From: Fibrobacter sp.
GTDB lineage: Bacteria; Fibrobacterota; Fibrobacteria; Fibrobacterales; Fibrobacteraceae
Direction of reading: 5' to 3'
Assembly (NCBI GenBank): GCA_024398875.1
Contig: JAKSIJ010000017.1
Coordinates: 1-52,615 of the forward strand
Length of the DNA stretch: 52,615 nt
Below, piece after piece: positions 40,413-48,002 of the stretch. The position numbers were made by a program, and so were the translations under genes. Every line of letters begins with the position of its first letter. The first letter of the stretch is position 1. The notes beneath the pieces were generated by a model. The model was not told the origin of the DNA. It searched no databases and saw only the letters and a program-made list of their open reading frames with translations.

Positions 40413-41372
40413 ATGTCTGGGAAAATCCGCTTTGCTCCAAGCCCCACCGGCTACCTTCACGAAGGCCACCTGCTTTCGGCGCTTTACGTGTGGGCCGCAG
40501 CCGCAAAATGGGATTTAAAAATTCACCTCCGCATTGAAGATCACGATAGAAGTAGGGCCCGAGAGGAATACATCACAGGCATCAAAGAGGATTTAGATTG
40601 GTTTGGATTCCACTACGATTCGGAAAGCATCCAGCGGGACCACGAAGAAGCCTACCAAGCAGCTCTACAAAAACTAGAAGCCGCACATCTTGTGTATCCC
40701 TGCTATTGCAGCCGCAAGCAGTTGGAAGCGGAAAATCCGAAAAGTGAAACCGGAGAAATCATTTATCAGGGGAAGTGCCGAGGGCAATTCACAATTCAAA
40801 ATTCACAATTTAAAATTGGGGCCGCGGGCTCTTCGCAATTCACAATTCAAAATTCACAATTTAAAATTGAAACCGCGGGCAATAACATTCCAGACATCAT
40901 CGCTCCCCACAATCTCCGGTTTAAGGTTACAGACAAAGTAATTCACTGGAACGATTTGCGCTTAGGCTCCTTCAACGAAAATCCGAAACTGCAATGTGGG
41001 GACTTTCCCATCCGGGATCGGGACGGTCAATGGACCTACCAGTTCGCCGTTTGCGTAGACGACATCAACGAGAGCATCACCCACATCGTCCGCGGCGAAG
41101 ACATCCGAAACTCCACCGCACGGCAAATCATGCTCATGCAAACCCTCGGGCGGGATGTCCCTCCCCTATACCTCCACCACCCCCTCATCAGTGATTCCAG
41201 TGGGAAAAAACTGTCAAAACGTGAGCTAGCTCACAGTCTCTGTCAAGACCGCGCCGCAGGCACCACGCCCGAGGAACTTCTCGGACGGGTATGCTACAAG
41301 GCAGGATTTGCAAGTGACGCTTCTCCGCTCCCTTTAAAACAGGCACTTTCCTTAATTCAAAAGAAATTGTAA
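40413..41372 (+). CDS. gluQ: Glutamyl-Q tRNA(Asp) synthetase with in-frame repeat insertions
   Basis: This 319-residue class I synthetase lacks an anticodon domain. HIGH is APSPTGYLHEGHL (7-19), zinc ligands sit in YPCYCSRK and KCRG, and the KMSKS-type loop is KKLSKREL. It glutamylates queuosine on tRNA-Asp. Immediately after KCRG there are two copies of an AT-rich 34-bp unit (40785-40818 and 40836-40869) that add about 34 residues (QFTIQNSQFKI twice) in frame. Relatives are about 290-300 residues, so the insertion accounts for the extra length. AAGGA precedes the start at 40413. Whether activity survives is not known. Confidence 0.92.
   Translation: MSGKIRFAPSPTGYLHEGHLLSALYVWAAAAKWDLKIHLRIEDHDRSRAREEYITGIKEDLDWFGFHYDSESIQRDHEEAYQAALQKLEAAHLVYPCYCSRKQLEAENPKSETGEIIYQGKCRGQFTIQNSQFKIGAAGSSQFTIQNSQFKIETAGNNIPDIIAPHNLRFKVTDKVIHWNDLRLGSFNENPKLQCGDFPIRDRDGQWTYQFAVCVDDINESITHIVRGEDIRNSTARQIMLMQTLGRDVPPLYLHHPLISDSSGKKLSKRELAHSLCQDRAAGTTPEELLGRVCYKAGFASDASPLPLKQALSLIQKKL
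40785..40869 (+). repeat. Tandem 34-bp AT-rich repeat inserted in gluQ
   Basis: CAATTCACAATTCAAAATTC and the following 14 bases occur identically at 40785-40818 and 40836-40869 (offset 51 bp, 17 codons), each followed by a GC-rich CCGCGGG block. Similar AATTCACAATTC motifs are frequent in noncoding repeats of other bacteria. Confidence 0.85.
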
Positions 41373-41407
41373 GATACGGTAGCCCCAAAAAAAGGTATAT
41401 TCAGAAT

Positions 41408-44400
41408 ATGCCTGAAATGAAGCCGTTCGCTACACTTTCCAAGATTTCGCAAGAAGCACTCGTTTTTGATTCCAAAGACCGCCTGTTGAATTTTTCACCA
41501 AAAGGGGAATTCCAGACACCTCTACTGCCAGAAGCAGGCGATCAGTTCCTTGAAAAGTGGCGCAAGGCAAACGGACCTCTCCCCTTAGACGCGTTCCTCC
41601 CAGAATCTGCCTCTTTCACTGCACAACAAAAGTGCAGTTTAGCGGAACAATTTTTAGCTGTCTTTAATGAAAAGGTGGAAGACTCCAACAGTTCCGACTT
41701 ATTCCTCCTCCTTGGATTCTTAAAAAGCTCCGGAAACCTCGCCCCCAGCCTTCTCATCCCTGTAGATGTAAATCCCGGAAATAAAACGGTGGCACTAGCA
41801 TCCCGCAAGCCCATAGAGAACATCGCCCTGCGAGAGACCTTGAAGGGAAAGGTGAACCTACCTAAGGTGGAAGACGCCACCACCGATGGGAATTTCAGTG
41901 CAAGTCTCTACTTCGACCTTTTTGAACAAGCTTTAGCAGAGCGTCCCGACTGGAAATTTACACGTCACGGCATCTGCCTCGCATTCTTTGATGCAACTGA
42001 ACTCACACTGAAAAAACGATTTGCCGATGGATTTGACGAAACAAGAGTGAACAACTCGGTCTTCTTCAATTCCGTCCTCACAGACCAGGGCTTTGATGCG
42101 GCGGATTCCATTTTTGAGAATGCGGTCTTTGACCAGATTTACAAACCGGCAGACCACTACTTCCTCTATACCACGGATTCCCACACCACAAAAGTGGCTT
42201 TAGATGCTCTGAATGAAAAGAATTCCATCTATGCCATTCAGGCTCTACCTGGTACCGCAAAGATGAAACTTGCGGCAAATATCGCTGCAGAAAATATTGC
42301 CCTGGGGAAGCGCACGCTGGTAGTTTCTCGCCGTGCTGTTACCACGCAGGCTTTCAACAGCGCCATCAAACCTGCCCGCACCTTTACCGGCCCAGACCGC
42401 GAGGTCGCCCAAAAAGATTTGCAAACCGCCTGGGATTCCTTTGCCAGCTATTATCAGGCAGTCAATCGTGACATCCCCGGCGCAGAAACTTCTCTTGCAA
42501 ACCTGCTAAAGGAATTCATCCAGGCGCCTCCTTCCAAGCAAAAATATCCAGACGCCATCTTCCGCAACGTGGCAAGCCTGAACTACGCCTCCTTCAAGGA
42601 AGTCCGCGCCGGTATGGCGAAGCTCACCAAGATTCAGGCCGAAGACAACGGCGATGCTTCTCAAAAGCATTTCCAGAAAATTAAAGTCCCCATCCTCACG
42701 CCCGAAAAGAAGGCCGAACTGGTGGAGGCCATCCGGAAGACCGCCGAAAGCACCATCGTGCTCAAGCCCTTTGTGCAGGCATTGTCTCAGACCAATATCT
42801 TCCCTGCCGGAGTTTCCCTCGGTGCTCTCTGCGACGCCTTGCGGCTATTGCCCGCAAACTTCAACAGCAAGACGCCCGTCTTTGAAGGCTGGCACCTGAA
42901 GGGCAAAGGCTGGACCGATTTCCAGGAACCTTTGCATGCGCTGCCAGAAGCCGGTGAAAAGTGGACAAAGTATCTCCGGGAATCAGCAGATATCTATAAC
43001 GAGGAAGCCCTGGACGAAAACTTCCGAGAGGCCCGTGAAGAGTTCGCCTCCAGCATGAAGGGTTCCTTCAAGAGTTTGTCTGAGCATTACCGCAACTCCA
43101 AAAAAGCTCTTCTCAAGGCAATCTACAACCCCAACGAAGTCAAAAATGACGAGCAGTTGCTGGAATATATTGACGCCTTTATCGAGATCCAGGACTGCAG
43201 AAAGTCATACAACGCAGCCTCTGCCCTAGCCCGCAATATGCTTGGAAAAGACTGGCTTGCGGAAGAAACGAATTGGTCGGATTTGCAGACCAAGATGAAT
43301 TTCATCTTCGACTTCCGGGATGCACACAAGAACTCTTCGGAGTTGGACTTGCTGCTACTCCTCCTGGAACAATGGCATACGTTGCAGGAATTCCAGCCTC
43401 AGTTCAAGGAACTGGCTAAAGCGGCAGAAGACATGAAGGGACCCGTAGAGGTGATTTCCCGCGGTCTCCGCATTACGCCACCCCTGGAAAACCAGCCTGT
43501 AGAAAACTGGATTGACGAGGTCCAGAGCTGGAACGAAAGTTGGGACAACTTGGGCAATGGAGCTCAACTGGACGCCACCTTCAGAATTCTCACAGACAAA
43601 GGTTGCACAGGCCTTGTCGCCTACATTCAAGGCGATGGACACATTAACAGCGATTTCATCCAAGCATTCTCTCGTTTCTGGGCTGGCGCATTTATCCAAA
43701 AGGCTACTCAGGCTGTACCGGATTTATTCAGCCTTCCACCCAAGGCACGCACCCAAAAGGGAAACGAGTTCCGCACGACGCTAGACACGTTCTGTGATTC
43801 CAATTTCAAACTCATCCATTCCATCATAGAGAAAAAACGCGGCAGTCTGATTCATGTTTCTCTGGAACAGAGCCTGACCCTCCCACAGAATCTCCGCTTC
43901 GACACAGCCATCGTTCTAGACGCAGATGCCATTTCTGTAGTGGAATCCCTGCCCATAGCAGCCATCGCCGAAAAACTGATTTTTATTGGCGATCCCCATG
44001 TCCCCGCATTGGAACCTCAGCCGCTTGATGGGTTTGCAGAAGAGGCCGAAACAAAGCATTCCGATTACTTTAAAAACAGCATTCTCCTATGGCTCCTCCG
44101 TCGTGGAGTCACCACGCGAGAAACCTGGCTCTGCGGAAATTATGCCGATGTGGATTTGGTGGAATTTGCAAACGAAAAGATTTACAACCACGGGATTCAT
44201 CAGTTCCCCATGCCTACCCGCGAAAGAAGCAGAAGCCAGAGCATCAAGGTTGTTCCGGACAAGGTTCTCGCCGTAGCGGAAGTCGCAGTCCAGCATGCCG
44301 AAAAGCACCCCGGACAGTCGCTAGGCATTGTCGCCTTCCATCAGTCCACCTGCATTGAAATCGAGGCCGCCATCAAGGCGCTCCTGCCGCAAAATTCCAA

Positions 44401-45505
44401 TGCCGCAAGATTTTTCACCAAGGGTAATCCCTTCGTCAGCTACTACGTCAAGACTCCGGACAGAGCCGTTGACAAGTACCGCGACGTGGTCATCGTCTGC
44501 GCAGAAGCCGAAGGTTGCGAAAAATCCATTTTCGAGAACAAGATTGCTGTTTGCACGACCCTTGCGAAGCAGGAACTACAAGTATTCATTTCTGAATCCG
44601 ACATGAAGAAGCGCCCCATGGGCCGAACCAACCTATTCTGGGATTGGATTTCCTATCTGCAGAAGGATTTGGTTTTTGATATTCCCGACGCATCACAAAT
44701 CGGTTCCGTTCTCAAGCCCATGATTATGGATGTGCTCCGCAAGGAACAACTCCACTACGAAGATTTCTATGCCCGCGGGGGCATTCCCATTGGCCCCGTA
44801 GTAGTAGACGCCAACAATCCCAAGCGGTTCCTGGCGCTCATCGAAGATGACTGCACCACAGAACGTTTCCGCGAATCCGTGGAAGACCGTCTTTATGTCC
44901 GTCACGACATGCTTCGCCAAATGGGTTGGAAGGTAATCAGTCTCTGGCTACCCGCCTGGTTTACCTCCAACGATGATGAAGTCAGCCACATCCTCGCTAC
45001 CATTGCCGTGGAACAAAGCGTAGCACCTCCCGCCCTTGAAGGCGAAGAAGAAGCCGCAATCGAAGAGGAAGAGTCCGAACTCCGCATCGAGCCCTACATG
45101 ATGAGCAACCCCAAAATCGAAGGGACTAGCCACGCAAGGCCCCTTATGGAGTTGGCTGCACAATCCATCATTGCGCAGATGAAGTTCTATGTGGATTACG
45201 AGGCTCCCATTCATGAGGAACTTTTGCAAAAGCGCCTCTTGGACCTTCACAAAGAAAGAGAGGTATCACCCGCACTGGCGCAACATCTGGCCGATTCTGT
45301 CAAGGAAGGCATCCAGAGAAAACGTTTCATCAAGACGGGCAAGTTCTTCTATTCCATGAAGAATCCGCCTGTGGTGCTCCGCGACCGCAGCGGCCTCCCC
45401 GACAGCGACCGCAAACTGGTTTACGTCTCTCCGGAAGAGCGTGCCCTGATTCCCAGTTCCATGGATGACCGCGAAATCAAGCAAATACTTGGGTTACTGG
45501 AATAA
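41408..45505 (+). CDS. SF1 helicase-like protein with degenerate ATPase motifs (DUF4011/DUF3320-type)
   Basis: This 1365-residue single open frame shows the layout of large superfamily I helicase-like proteins: N-terminal domain, helicase core, Vsr-like endonuclease segment (about 1150-1190, 'RLYVRHDMLRQMGWKVISLW'), and a DUF3320-like C-terminal module (about 1230-1290). The core's usual GxPGTGK(S/T) is LPGTAKMK (about 281), the Walker B DEA(S/Q) is LDADAIS (about 836), and GDP survives in FIGDPHVPAL (about 861). The distal arginine motif is unrecognisable. This suggests a DNA-bound but ATPase-inactive protein. The start at 41408 follows TATATTC by six bases. Function unknown; some relatives sit in defence-type loci. 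Confidence 0.8.
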   Translation: MPEMKPFATLSKISQEALVFDSKDRLLNFSPKGEFQTPLLPEAGDQFLEKWRKANGPLPLDAFLPESASFTAQQKCSLAEQFLAVFNEKVEDSNSSDLFLLLGFLKSSGNLAPSLLIPVDVNPGNKTVALASRKPIENIALRETLKGKVNLPKVEDATTDGNFSASLYFDLFEQALAERPDWKFTRHGICLAFFDATELTLKKRFADGFDETRVNNSVFFNSVLTDQGFDAADSIFENAVFDQIYKPADHYFLYTTDSHTTKVALDALNEKNSIYAIQALPGTAKMKLAANIAAENIALGKRTLVVSRRAVTTQAFNSAIKPARTFTGPDREVAQKDLQTAWDSFASYYQAVNRDIPGAETSLANLLKEFIQAPPSKQKYPDAIFRNVASLNYASFKEVRAGMAKLTKIQAEDNGDASQKHFQKIKVPILTPEKKAELVEAIRKTAESTIVLKPFVQALSQTNIFPAGVSLGALCDALRLLPANFNSKTPVFEGWHLKGKGWTDFQEPLHALPEAGEKWTKYLRESADIYNEEALDENFREAREEFASSMKGSFKSLSEHYRNSKKALLKAIYNPNEVKNDEQLLEYIDAFIEIQDCRKSYNAASALARNMLGKDWLAEETNWSDLQTKMNFIFDFRDAHKNSSELDLLLLLLEQWHTLQEFQPQFKELAKAAEDMKGPVEVISRGLRITPPLENQPVENWIDEVQSWNESWDNLGNGAQLDATFRILTDKGCTGLVAYIQGDGHINSDFIQAFSRFWAGAFIQKATQAVPDLFSLPPKARTQKGNEFRTTLDTFCDSNFKLIHSIIEKKRGSLIHVSLEQSLTLPQNLRFDTAIVLDADAISVVESLPIAAIAEKLIFIGDPHVPALEPQPLDGFAEEAETKHSDYFKNSILLWLLRRGVTTRETWLCGNYADVDLVEFANEKIYNHGIHQFPMPTRERSRSQSIKVVPDKVLAVAEVAVQHAEKHPGQSLGIVAFHQSTCIEIEAAIKALLPQNSNAARFFTKGNPFVSYYVKTPDRAVDKYRDVVIVCAEAEGCEKSIFENKIAVCTTLAKQELQVFISESDMKKRPMGRTNLFWDWISYLQKDLVFDIPDASQIGSVLKPMIMDVLRKEQLHYEDFYARGGIPIGPVVVDANNPKRFLALIEDDCTTERFRESVEDRLYVRHDMLRQMGWKVISLWLPAWFTSNDDEVSHILATIAVEQSVAPPALEGEEEAAIEEEESELRIEPYMMSNPKIEGTSHARPLMELAAQSIIAQMKFYVDYEAPIHEELLQKRLLDLHKEREVSPALAQHLADSVKEGIQRKRFIKTGKFFYSMKNPPVVLRDRSGLPDSDRKLVYVSPEERALIPSSMDDREIKQILGLLE

Positions 45506-46166: not shown

Positions 46167-48002
46167 ATGAGCAGAAATTTTTCAAGACTCGCCCTACTGC
46201 CCCTGGCAATTGTCATTTTCCCCTTCTGTTTAGCCTCCTGCTCTAGTGGAGGAAACTCAACTGATTCTGGAATGAGCGACAAAGAATACAGGGATTACCT
46301 CGCCTCCACCGAAGTTCAGAGTGATTTGGAACTTTTCTACGAATTCGCATTGAAGGCAGACAATCTAAAAATGTCCATCATTTTGGCAATGACCGATGGC
46401 GACGAATTTTTCAATGACGAAGTCGATGAGGATGAAGCAGATTCCATCTTTTTGCTCATGGAAGAAATCATCCAAAAAGGTGACGAGTACGAAGAAGCAC
46501 TGCTGCGCCTGGAGAACAGCAAGTTTTTCAACACCGCAACACCAACATCCCTAAAGAAGGGACTCGAAGGGATGGGTCTTGTCAAAGCCGGCAAGGATTT
46601 ACTCAATGAATGCAGAGGGGCCGGGCAAACCGTTCGTGAATGGACGATGGAAGTTTTCCTTTCCGATGGGGTGAAGAGTGATGCCAACCGCAAAGCCTTA
46701 TTTAACGAACTTTCCAGTGAATTAAAGCAGGGTGCCTCCGATTACAAGGAATGGTGGAGGAACTTCAACGCAGGAGAATATGACGCTTCTTCAGGACGCA
46801 TTTTCAACGCCTTTTTAACAGGAACAAGTAGAGCTTCAGAAGCATTTGCTTCCGAAGCCGGCTTGAGACGGCTAGACAATTCAGCAGTCTTTACTTCCAT
46901 CGGTCCTCGCCTTTTAGAAAGCGGATTCAATCTCATTGTAGAAGCTACAGGCAACATCATTCCCGGAGCAATGAGCATTGGCGTGAATATCGGGGCCAAT
47001 GCCGTAAAAACTGTTGAGATTTTAGCAACAGCCGCCGGGAGAAAAATTTCTGACATTTCAGCAGATATTGCAGAAGGCATCCTGAACATGATTCCAGGAT
47101 ACGGCGACGTAAAGGCGACCATCGACATGATTCCCTCTGCCGAGGAAGTCAAAGCCACCATAAACACCTTTAAAAATTACATTGAAGATAAAATCAATAG
47201 CTACTCAGACCCATCAGAAGTTGACGTAGCACGAATTTCCTATGACGATGAAGATGAAACAGAAGCCAAGGTTCTAGTAGCCATCGACCAGGGGTCCGGC
47301 AAGGCTACCCTTTCCTTCGGAAGTGCGACGGACAATTCCGTCTCTGCCAATTTGCCAGAAGGCAATTACATCGTAACCGCAGTCGATGAAGAAGGCGACA
47401 AGTTCACAGAAGAAATTTCATTAGAAGCCGGCGATATCATTGAAAAAACAATAGAGACAAACGAAAGCGAGATTCTGGAAGAGTTGGTCAGCAGTTCATC
47501 AACAAGATTCAACGATGACGAGGAAAGCTCCAGTTCCAGAAGGCACGACTTTGACTTTGATGACGAAAGCTCCAGCTCCGAAAAATCAGAGTCTGAACTC
47601 TGTGACCCCTACGAACTGGGCCAAGAAGGTTATACAAATTGCCTATTTATTGGCGAGTGGACGCCTAAAAAACTATCTATCACCTGTGAAACGTACAACG
47701 AAAATTACGACTATAGCGATGGAACAGGCGCTAATTGCACGCTCACTTTCAAAAATAACGGAATTGGATTTTGGCACTGCACTTATGATGATGGTGATGA
47801 AGAAAGAACTGAATTTGAGTACAACGTAGATCTAACAAGCGCTTTGCCCGAATTGTCAATGGATGACGGAACAGGAACATCCGTTGTCACAATAACATTG
47901 TTGGGACAAGAAAGCAATGGTGAGTTTTATCTCAGTTACAACTCATCTTCCAAAGATGCAAACGGCGAAAAGTGCTACGAAAACTACTCCTTCACGCGGT
48001 AA
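46167..48002 (+). CDS. Large lipoprotein with Ig-like and C-terminal modules
   Basis: This 611-residue lipoprotein has a signal peptide ending LASCSS. An acidic helical region follows (about 30-300, with a helical repeat GEYDASSGRIFNAF and a segment near IPGYGDVKATIDMI). It has a carboxypeptidase-regulatory/PEGA-like beta domain (about 350-430), a Ser-rich linker with repeated SSSS (about 435-475), and a final lipocalin-like domain (LFIGEWTPKKLSI onward). I recognise no functional family. A ribosome site GGAG precedes the start at 46167. It stands alone between the SPOR gene and a terminator at 48068. Confidence 0.75.
   Translation: MSRNFSRLALLPLAIVIFPFCLASCSSGGNSTDSGMSDKEYRDYLASTEVQSDLELFYEFALKADNLKMSIILAMTDGDEFFNDEVDEDEADSIFLLMEEIIQKGDEYEEALLRLENSKFFNTATPTSLKKGLEGMGLVKAGKDLLNECRGAGQTVREWTMEVFLSDGVKSDANRKALFNELSSELKQGASDYKEWWRNFNAGEYDASSGRIFNAFLTGTSRASEAFASEAGLRRLDNSAVFTSIGPRLLESGFNLIVEATGNIIPGAMSIGVNIGANAVKTVEILATAAGRKISDISADIAEGILNMIPGYGDVKATIDMIPSAEEVKATINTFKNYIEDKINSYSDPSEVDVARISYDDEDETEAKVLVAIDQGSGKATLSFGSATDNSVSANLPEGNYIVTAVDEEGDKFTEEISLEAGDIIEKTIETNESEILEELVSSSSTRFNDDEESSSSRRHDFDFDDESSSSEKSESELCDPYELGQEGYTNCLFIGEWTPKKLSITCETYNENYDYSDGTGANCTLTFKNNGIGFWHCTYDDGDEERTEFEYNVDLTSALPELSMDDGTGTSVVTITLLGQESNGEFYLSYNSSSKDANGEKCYENYSFTR

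What the first reader, a model, noticed from the sequence alone, without database searches (positions are those of the whole stretch)
41408..45505. Full-length SF1 helicase-like protein with every ATPase motif eroded
The 1365-codon frame is open, with clear Vsr-like and DUF3320-like modules. Yet Walker A is LPGTAKMK, Walker B is LDADAIS, and the arginine motif cannot be found. A long, intact reading frame suggests selection for a non-catalytic role such as a scaffold or sensor, rather than decay.
Basis: partly seen in the sequence, partly recalled or inferred. Interest (0 to 1): 0.6.

Follow-up and report, generated by a model that had tools for sequence, protein, structure and literature searches.

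The report
Family-wide dead helicase-nuclease, still conserved
Fibrobacter and related genera carry, at one fixed chromosomal site, a large protein related to anti-phage DNA helicase-nucleases whose ATP-using and DNA-cutting residues are gone in every copy examined, yet selection still strongly preserves it, so it probably works as a non-enzymatic scaffold.

Summary
Window 41408-45505 (+) is an intact 1365-aa frame related to the DUF4011 / SF1 helicase / MTES_1575 (Vsr-like) nuclease / DUF3320 proteins (PADLOC PDC-S37, 316 bits; ProA; Hhe). Its ATPase motifs are degenerate. No orthologue has intact motifs: in 91 aligned orthologues from 7 Fibrobacteraceae genera, the Q-motif Gln, both P-loop glycines, the Walker B Asp and Glu, the motif V Gln and Glu and the arginine finger are retained in 0 of 91. 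dN/dS is 0.03-0.16. The gene is near-universal in the genus (78 of 80 genomes), sits directly downstream of gluQRS across genera, and forms one 100/100-supported group apart from motif-intact relatives. AlphaFold2 (pLDDT 88.7) keeps the Upf1/UvrD-like fold. Conservation has shifted from the catalytic core to the helical insert and C-terminal winged helix. Best explanation: an ancient, vertically inherited pseudohelicase/pseudonuclease co-opted as an ATP-independent scaffold, comparable in kind to RecC/AddB. The partner is unknown. It does not replace RecC, because Fibrobacteraceae have RecB- and RecC-like genes of their own.

The parts
41408..45505 (+). Pseudohelicase/pseudonuclease gene, 1365 aa (P0001)
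   Evidence: Open frame; PDC-S37 316 bits; 91 aligned orthologues
41435..42127 (+). N-terminal DUF4011-like region (res. ~10-240)
   Evidence: PDC-S37 profile stretch 125-344 covers most of it; orthologue L097 passes the DUF4011 cut-off; AF2 model
42140..42382 (+). RecA-like domain 1A with degenerate Q motif (TDSHT, res. 256-260) and P-loop (ALPGTAKM, res. 279-286)
   Evidence: AF2 strand 274-279, loop, helix 285-298
42395..43837 (+). Long helical insert (res. ~330-810) carrying most of the newly conserved residues (W495, W502, W519, R524, R543, W616, E619)
43838..44017 (+). Degenerate Walker B and motif III (LDADAIS...GDPHVP, res. 811-870)
   Evidence: highest dN/dS of the folded segments, 0.141
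44090..44662 (+). RecA-like domain 2A with motifs IV, V and VI lost (res. 895-1085)
44705..45007 (+). MTES_1575/Vsr-like nuclease fold with catalytic Asp (G1129) and His (R1153) sites lost; E1146 and D1148 kept (res. 1100-1200)
   Evidence: Pfam 33.1 bits; C-terminal model weakly matches 3r3p and 3hrl
45008..45034 (+). EQSVAPP linker motif (VEQSVAPPA here, res. 1201-1209), near-invariant in orthologues, not seen in intact relatives
45128..45502 (+). C-terminal winged-helix / DUF3320-like region (res. 1241-1365), the most conserved part
41388..41402 (+). Conserved promoter-like AAAAAAGGTATATTC ending 5 nt before the ATG (probably a leaderless mRNA)
   Evidence: TATATT conserved in 34-35 of 36 orthologues; same motif upstream of other genes in this genome
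40413..41372 (+). gluQRS-like glutamyl-tRNA synthetase paralogue directly upstream; synteny marker
   Evidence: Pfam PF00749; upstream in 14 of the 15 orthologue loci fetched from other genera

Best explanation
A DUF4011/PDC-S37-type SF1 helicase-nuclease (the intact relatives are known or candidate anti-phage proteins) was fixed next to gluQRS in an ancestor of Fibrobacteraceae and lost both its ATPase and its nuclease centre before the genera diverged. It has since been kept as an ATP-independent structural platform: the two RecA-like domains and the nuclease fold persist as a scaffold, while the long helical insert and the C-terminal winged helix bind a partner (protein or nucleic acid). 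Shown here: homology, loss of both catalytic centres in all orthologues, a single degenerate group in the tree, fixed locus, purifying selection, retained predicted fold, and the shift of conservation to insert and C-terminus. Inferred: loss of activity at the bench, the scaffold role, and the partner-binding surfaces. The partner and process are unknown.
For: Family. Catalytic residues 0/91 at Q-motif Gln, P-loop G1 and G6, Walker B D and E, motif V Gln and Glu, arginine finger and nuclease Asp; intact comparators 9-10 of 10 at the same columns. Single degenerate group, 100/100 support. Near-universal in the genus (78/80), present in 6 other genera, same place downstream of gluQRS. dN/dS 0.03-0.16; all folded domains 0.05-0.14. 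AF2 pLDDT 88.7, pTM 0.74, best matches Ighmbp2 and Upf1 Z 19-20 and UvrD Z 18.7. Within-set conservation profile inverts: intact has Walker B segment 0.74 and C-terminus 0.39, degenerate group has 0.52 and 0.71; 40 newly conserved positions, many in the insert. Precedent: AddB and RecC use inactivated SF1 helicase domains as scanners (PMC4824097).
Against: No partner, phenotype or expression data. P-loop Lys is kept in 73/91, and acids at D838, E1146 and D1148 are invariant, so weak nucleotide or metal binding is not excluded. Net charge is -35 with no strongly basic domain, which does not favour simple nucleic-acid binding. The gene was not found in some genera of the family (g14, g15, g16, g20) or in G164, so it is not needed everywhere. 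The two conservation sets differ in taxonomic depth, so only within-set profiles may be compared.
Confidence: 0.62

Rival explanations
1. Recent or ongoing decay: a defence gene that has lost its motifs and is on the way out.
For: Motifs lost; 2 copies are interrupted (L006 one TAG; L171 frameshift).
Against: Loss shared by 91 aligned orthologues over 7 genera, dN/dS 0.03-0.16, full length in nearly all, fixed synteny.
Confidence: 0.02
2. It keeps a changed catalytic activity: P-loop Lys285 (73/91) with Asp838 supports non-canonical NTP binding, or Glu1146/Asp1148 keep metal-dependent chemistry.
For: K285 mostly kept; D838, E1146 and D1148 invariant; P-loop topology kept in the model.
Against: Both P-loop glycines, nearly always the Ser/Thr, the Mg-binding Asp, the arginine finger and the nuclease Asp are gone; an 11-member subset has Trp in place of the P-loop Lys and still shows low dN/dS (L007-L010 pairs).
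Confidence: 0.1
3. It is still an anti-phage factor, acting without catalysis as a sensor, decoy or guard.
For: Its closest relatives are anti-phage or candidate defence proteins; motif-intact relatives persist in two Fibrobacter genomes.
Against: Fixed housekeeping neighbourhood (gluQRS, SPOR), near-universal in the genus, low dN/dS, no match in phages or viral contigs and only partial 21-25% matches in plasmids. Defence genes are usually patchy (established knowledge).
Confidence: 0.15
4. It replaces RecC as the inactive SF1 subunit of a RecBC/AddAB-type complex.
For: Same kind of object: inactive SF1 helicase plus inactive nuclease fold.
Against: The sampled genomes have RecC-like and RecB-like genes elsewhere, whether or not they carry this gene (RecC-like in 17 of 18, RecB-like in 18 of 18; below the curated cut-offs, but E <= 1e-57 for RecC and <= 1e-94 for RecB in 17).
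Confidence: 0.02

Closest known systems
PADLOC PDC-S37 / DUF4011-DUF3320 SF1 helicase-nucleases (with Hhe and ProA)
   Same: Collinear architecture: DUF4011-like N-terminus, SF1 core with long insert, MTES_1575 nuclease fold, DUF3320-like C-terminus
   Different: ATPase motif residues and the nuclease Asp/His are lost; chromosomal, fixed, genus-core rather than patchy; about 1365 aa against 1537-2157 aa for the full-length comparators fetched
RecC and AddB (inactive SF1 subunits)
   Same: SF1 fold without the motifs, kept by selection; inactivated helicase domains used as scanners (PMC4824097). RecC also has an inactive nuclease fold (own knowledge)
   Different: Different SF1 branch and nuclease family; no known partner; Fibrobacteraceae have separate RecB/RecC-like genes
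Utp25 pseudohelicase
   Same: Helicase fold with vestigial motifs and a retained role (PMC9539457)
   Different: DEAD-box, eukaryotic, ribosome assembly

Membership tests
PDC-S37 / DUF4011-SF1-MTES_1575-DUF3320 family (homology) | Collinear profile match over most of the length | tested here: met
   PDC-S37 316 bits in 3 stretches, profile 125-344, 395-856, 1077-1487; orthologue L097 445 bits
PDC-S37 / DUF4011-SF1-MTES_1575-DUF3320 family (homology) | Pfam DUF4011, MTES_1575 and DUF3320 above cut-offs | tested here: inconclusive
   P0001: MTES_1575 33.1 bits (cut-off 38.2), DUF3320 14.2 (25), no DUF4011; L097: 44.4, 32.3 and 22.6, all above cut-off
PDC-S37 / ProA / Hhe as active SF1 helicase | Intact Walker A, Walker B and arginine finger | tested here: not met
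   0/91 for P-loop G1 and G6, Walker B D and E, and arginine finger; 10/10 in comparators
PDC-S37 / ProA / Hhe as active nuclease | Catalytic Asp and His of the Vsr-like site | tested here: not met
   Asp 0/91, His 1/91; comparators 10/10 and 7/10
NCBIfam ProA (NF058533) / Hhe (NF042953) | Curated equivalog cut-off | tested here: not met
   210 bits against 1500; 74.5 against 2000
Superfamily 1 helicase fold | Two RecA-like domains with SF1 topology | tested here: met
   AF2 pLDDT 88.7; Z 19.7 to Ighmbp2, 19.2 to Upf1, 18.7 to UvrD; a predicted model only
Pseudoenzyme (pseudohelicase) | Kept by selection without the catalytic residues | tested here: met
   dN/dS 0.03-0.16 and 0/91 catalytic residues
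Pseudoenzyme (pseudohelicase) | No measurable catalysis | not testable with these tools
   Needs an ATPase/nuclease assay
RecC (TIGR01450) | Sequence match to the family | tested here: not met
   In G000 the RecC model matches only C1:356360-359728, not the window on C9

The most novel reading that the evidence does not exclude
An anti-phage-type helicase-nuclease was domesticated in the Fibrobacteraceae ancestor into a core, doubly catalytically dead scaffold protein with an unknown cellular role: a bacterial pseudohelicase/pseudonuclease family born from the DUF4011 defence lineage.
Probability: 0.5. Interest if true: 0.68.

Novelty: new variant of a known kind. Interest (0 to 1): 0.56.

Why it matters
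To my knowledge, large pseudoenzymes derived from defence helicase-nucleases that have become core genes are rarely documented in bacteria. With about 90 orthologues, a fixed locus and motif-intact relatives in the same genus, this one gives a clean comparison of what an SF1 helicase-nuclease fold is kept for once catalysis is gone. It also warns that profile-based annotation (PADLOC PDC-S37) could call a dead core gene an anti-phage protein in nearly every Fibrobacter genome.

Tried and rejected
Recent decay: rejected by dN/dS and distribution. RecC replacement: rejected, RecB- and RecC-like genes found elsewhere. Mobile or phage carriage: no match in phages or viral contigs, only partial 21-25% matches to distant DUF4011-type proteins in plasmids. 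A transitional orthologue with intact motifs in other genera: none; G097's hit is a 245-aa fragment of an intact-type gene, not an orthologue. An apparent shifted GKT in L103/L104 (LPGTDGGKT, LPGTDNGKT) is two residues out of register and lacks the first P-loop Gly, so I do not read it as an intact Walker A. My first reading, that Walker B Glu became Ala, was an alignment slip; the gapless alignment gives D to L and E to D. phmmer against PDB gave nothing useful. Foldseek with the C-terminal piece gave no match at E <= 0.001. Literature searches found nothing on this protein.

Full report
Observation. The frame 41408-45505 (+) is open over 1365 codons. PADLOC PDC-S37 matches at 316 bits in three stretches, NCBIfam ProA at 210 bits and Hhe at 74 bits. 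Pfam gives only sub-threshold MTES_1575 and DUF3320. The orthologue L097 passes the Pfam cut-offs for DUF4011, MTES_1575 and DUF3320, and the motif-intact relative P0002 from G033 shows DUF4011, AAA_11, AAA_12 and MTES_1575. The architecture is therefore established, partly through relatives.

Distribution. One full-length copy lies in G000 and the gene is present in all 36 genus relatives sampled first (G015 only a contig-edge fragment), at 39-51% identity over full-length copies. A profile search of 167 phylum genomes finds it in 78 of 80 genus genomes and in 15 genomes of six other genera of the family (g17, g18, g19, g21, g22, g23). It was not found in g14, g15, g16, g20, in one g23 genome (G164) or in other families (G097's hit is a fragment of an intact-type gene). 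The two genus genomes without it are 65% and 71% complete. Record L031 names the genus as Fibrobacter. The gene follows gluQRS and faces a SPOR-domain gene in most genus loci inspected, and gluQRS is directly upstream in 14 of the 15 orthologue loci fetched from other genera. At the gluQRS-like loci inspected in genomes without the gene, no relative was found. This is vertical inheritance at a fixed site.

Motifs. Ninety-one aligned orthologues (90 genomes; G123 appears twice, as L031 and L164) were compared with ten motif-intact relatives from Haloferax, Vibrio, Aristaeella, Bacteroides, Azospirillum, Salinibacter, Hymenobacter, Klebsiella (Hhe) and two Fibrobacter genomes. Retained in the orthologues: Q-motif Gln 0, P-loop G1 0, G6 0, K7 73, S/T8 3, Walker B Asp 0 (Leu in 90), Walker B Glu 0 (Asp in 91), motif IV Arg 1, motif V Gln 0 and Glu 0, arginine finger 0 (Leu 82, His 9). 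Nuclease: Asp 0, His 1, while Glu1146 and Asp1148 are kept in 91. Both catalytic centres are therefore gone everywhere. Intact relatives lie elsewhere in G033 and G006.

Phylogeny and selection. The degenerate group is one side of a 100/100 branch, compatible with one loss (midpoint root, so the direction rests on the motifs being ancestral to SF1 helicases, which is established knowledge). NG86 dN/dS is 0.028-0.158 for ten close pairs, 0.061 for window versus L031, pooled 0.078. By region it is 0.054 in the C-terminus, 0.07-0.08 in insert, 2A and nuclease fold, and 0.141 in the Walker B segment. Two copies are interrupted (L006 TAG, L171 frameshift); both are draft genomes and these may be assembly errors.

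Structure. AlphaFold2 on residues 1-1200 with 40 orthologues gives pLDDT 88.7 and pTM 0.74. The strand / P-loop / helix arrangement persists (274-279, 280-284, 285-298). Best structural matches are Ighmbp2, Upf1 and UvrD at Z about 19-20. The C-terminal piece (pLDDT 85.6, pTM 0.50) weakly resembles Vsr/EDxHD-type endonucleases and winged helices (no match at E <= 0.001).

Where conservation went. In intact relatives the Walker B segment is the most conserved part (0.74) and the C-terminus is low (0.39). In the degenerate group the order is inverted (0.52 and 0.71). Forty positions are newly conserved, many of them Trp/Arg in the helical insert, plus the EQSVAPP linker. The sets differ in breadth, so I compare profiles within each set only.

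Mechanism. The most economical reading is a structural platform that no longer needs ATP, with partner-binding surfaces on the insert and the C-terminus. The precedent is the inactivated SF1 domains of AddB and RecC used as scanners (PMC4824097); Utp25 is a eukaryotic pseudohelicase precedent (PMC9539457). A direct RecC-replacement role is made very unlikely by the presence of RecB- and RecC-like genes. A residual defence role cannot be excluded, but neighbours, near-universality and selection look like housekeeping.

Promoter. AAAAAAGGTATATTC ends 5 nt before the ATG, with TATATT kept in 34-35 of 36 orthologues inside an otherwise variable spacer. The same motif lies 1-42 nt upstream of several other genes in the genome. 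This suggests a dedicated promoter and a leaderless mRNA; it is inferred, not shown.

Limits. No expression, partner or phenotype data. Other phyla were not searched with the profile, apart from plasmid, phage and viral collections and one narrow genome-contig scan. AF2 predicts folds and cannot show activity or its absence.

Noticed in passing
window 41388-41402: AAAAAAGGTATATTC directly before the ATG, its TATATT conserved in 34-35 of 36 orthologues; a Fibrobacter promoter-like motif placed so that the mRNA would be leaderless.
   Followed up: partly
window 40785-40875: gluQRS carries an in-frame, duplicated low-complexity insert (CAATTCACAATTCAAAATTCACAATTTAAAATTG, giving QFTIQNSQFKI twice) that is absent from the L065 gluQRS.
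   Followed up: partly
L038 (G033) and L040 (G006): Motif-intact PDC-S37-type proteins (1407 and 1216 bits) in only two of the 36 sampled Fibrobacter relatives, at other loci than the dead core gene.
   Followed up: partly
L006; L171: Interrupted copies of the core gene: one in-frame TAG in G028 and a frameshift in G116.
   Followed up: partly
L103, L104: Genus g23 copies have a displaced GKT after the P-loop (LPGTDGGKT / LPGTDNGKT), two residues out of register.
   Followed up: partly
G000:C1:356360-363762: RecC-like and RecB-like genes in tandem; they match below the curated cut-offs, so the Fibrobacteraceae RecBC is divergent.
   Followed up: no
L119 (Aristaeella lactis plasmid); L120 (Bacteroides finegoldii plasmid): Intact DUF4011/DUF3320 helicases next to a serine/threonine kinase gene and a reverse transcriptase gene respectively; possible defence neighbourhoods.
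   Followed up: no
window 46167-48002 versus L062-L077: Downstream of the SPOR gene most genomes carry a protein of about 1500 aa on the opposite strand (cluster c1); the window has an unrelated 611-aa lipoprotein-like gene there instead.
   Followed up: no
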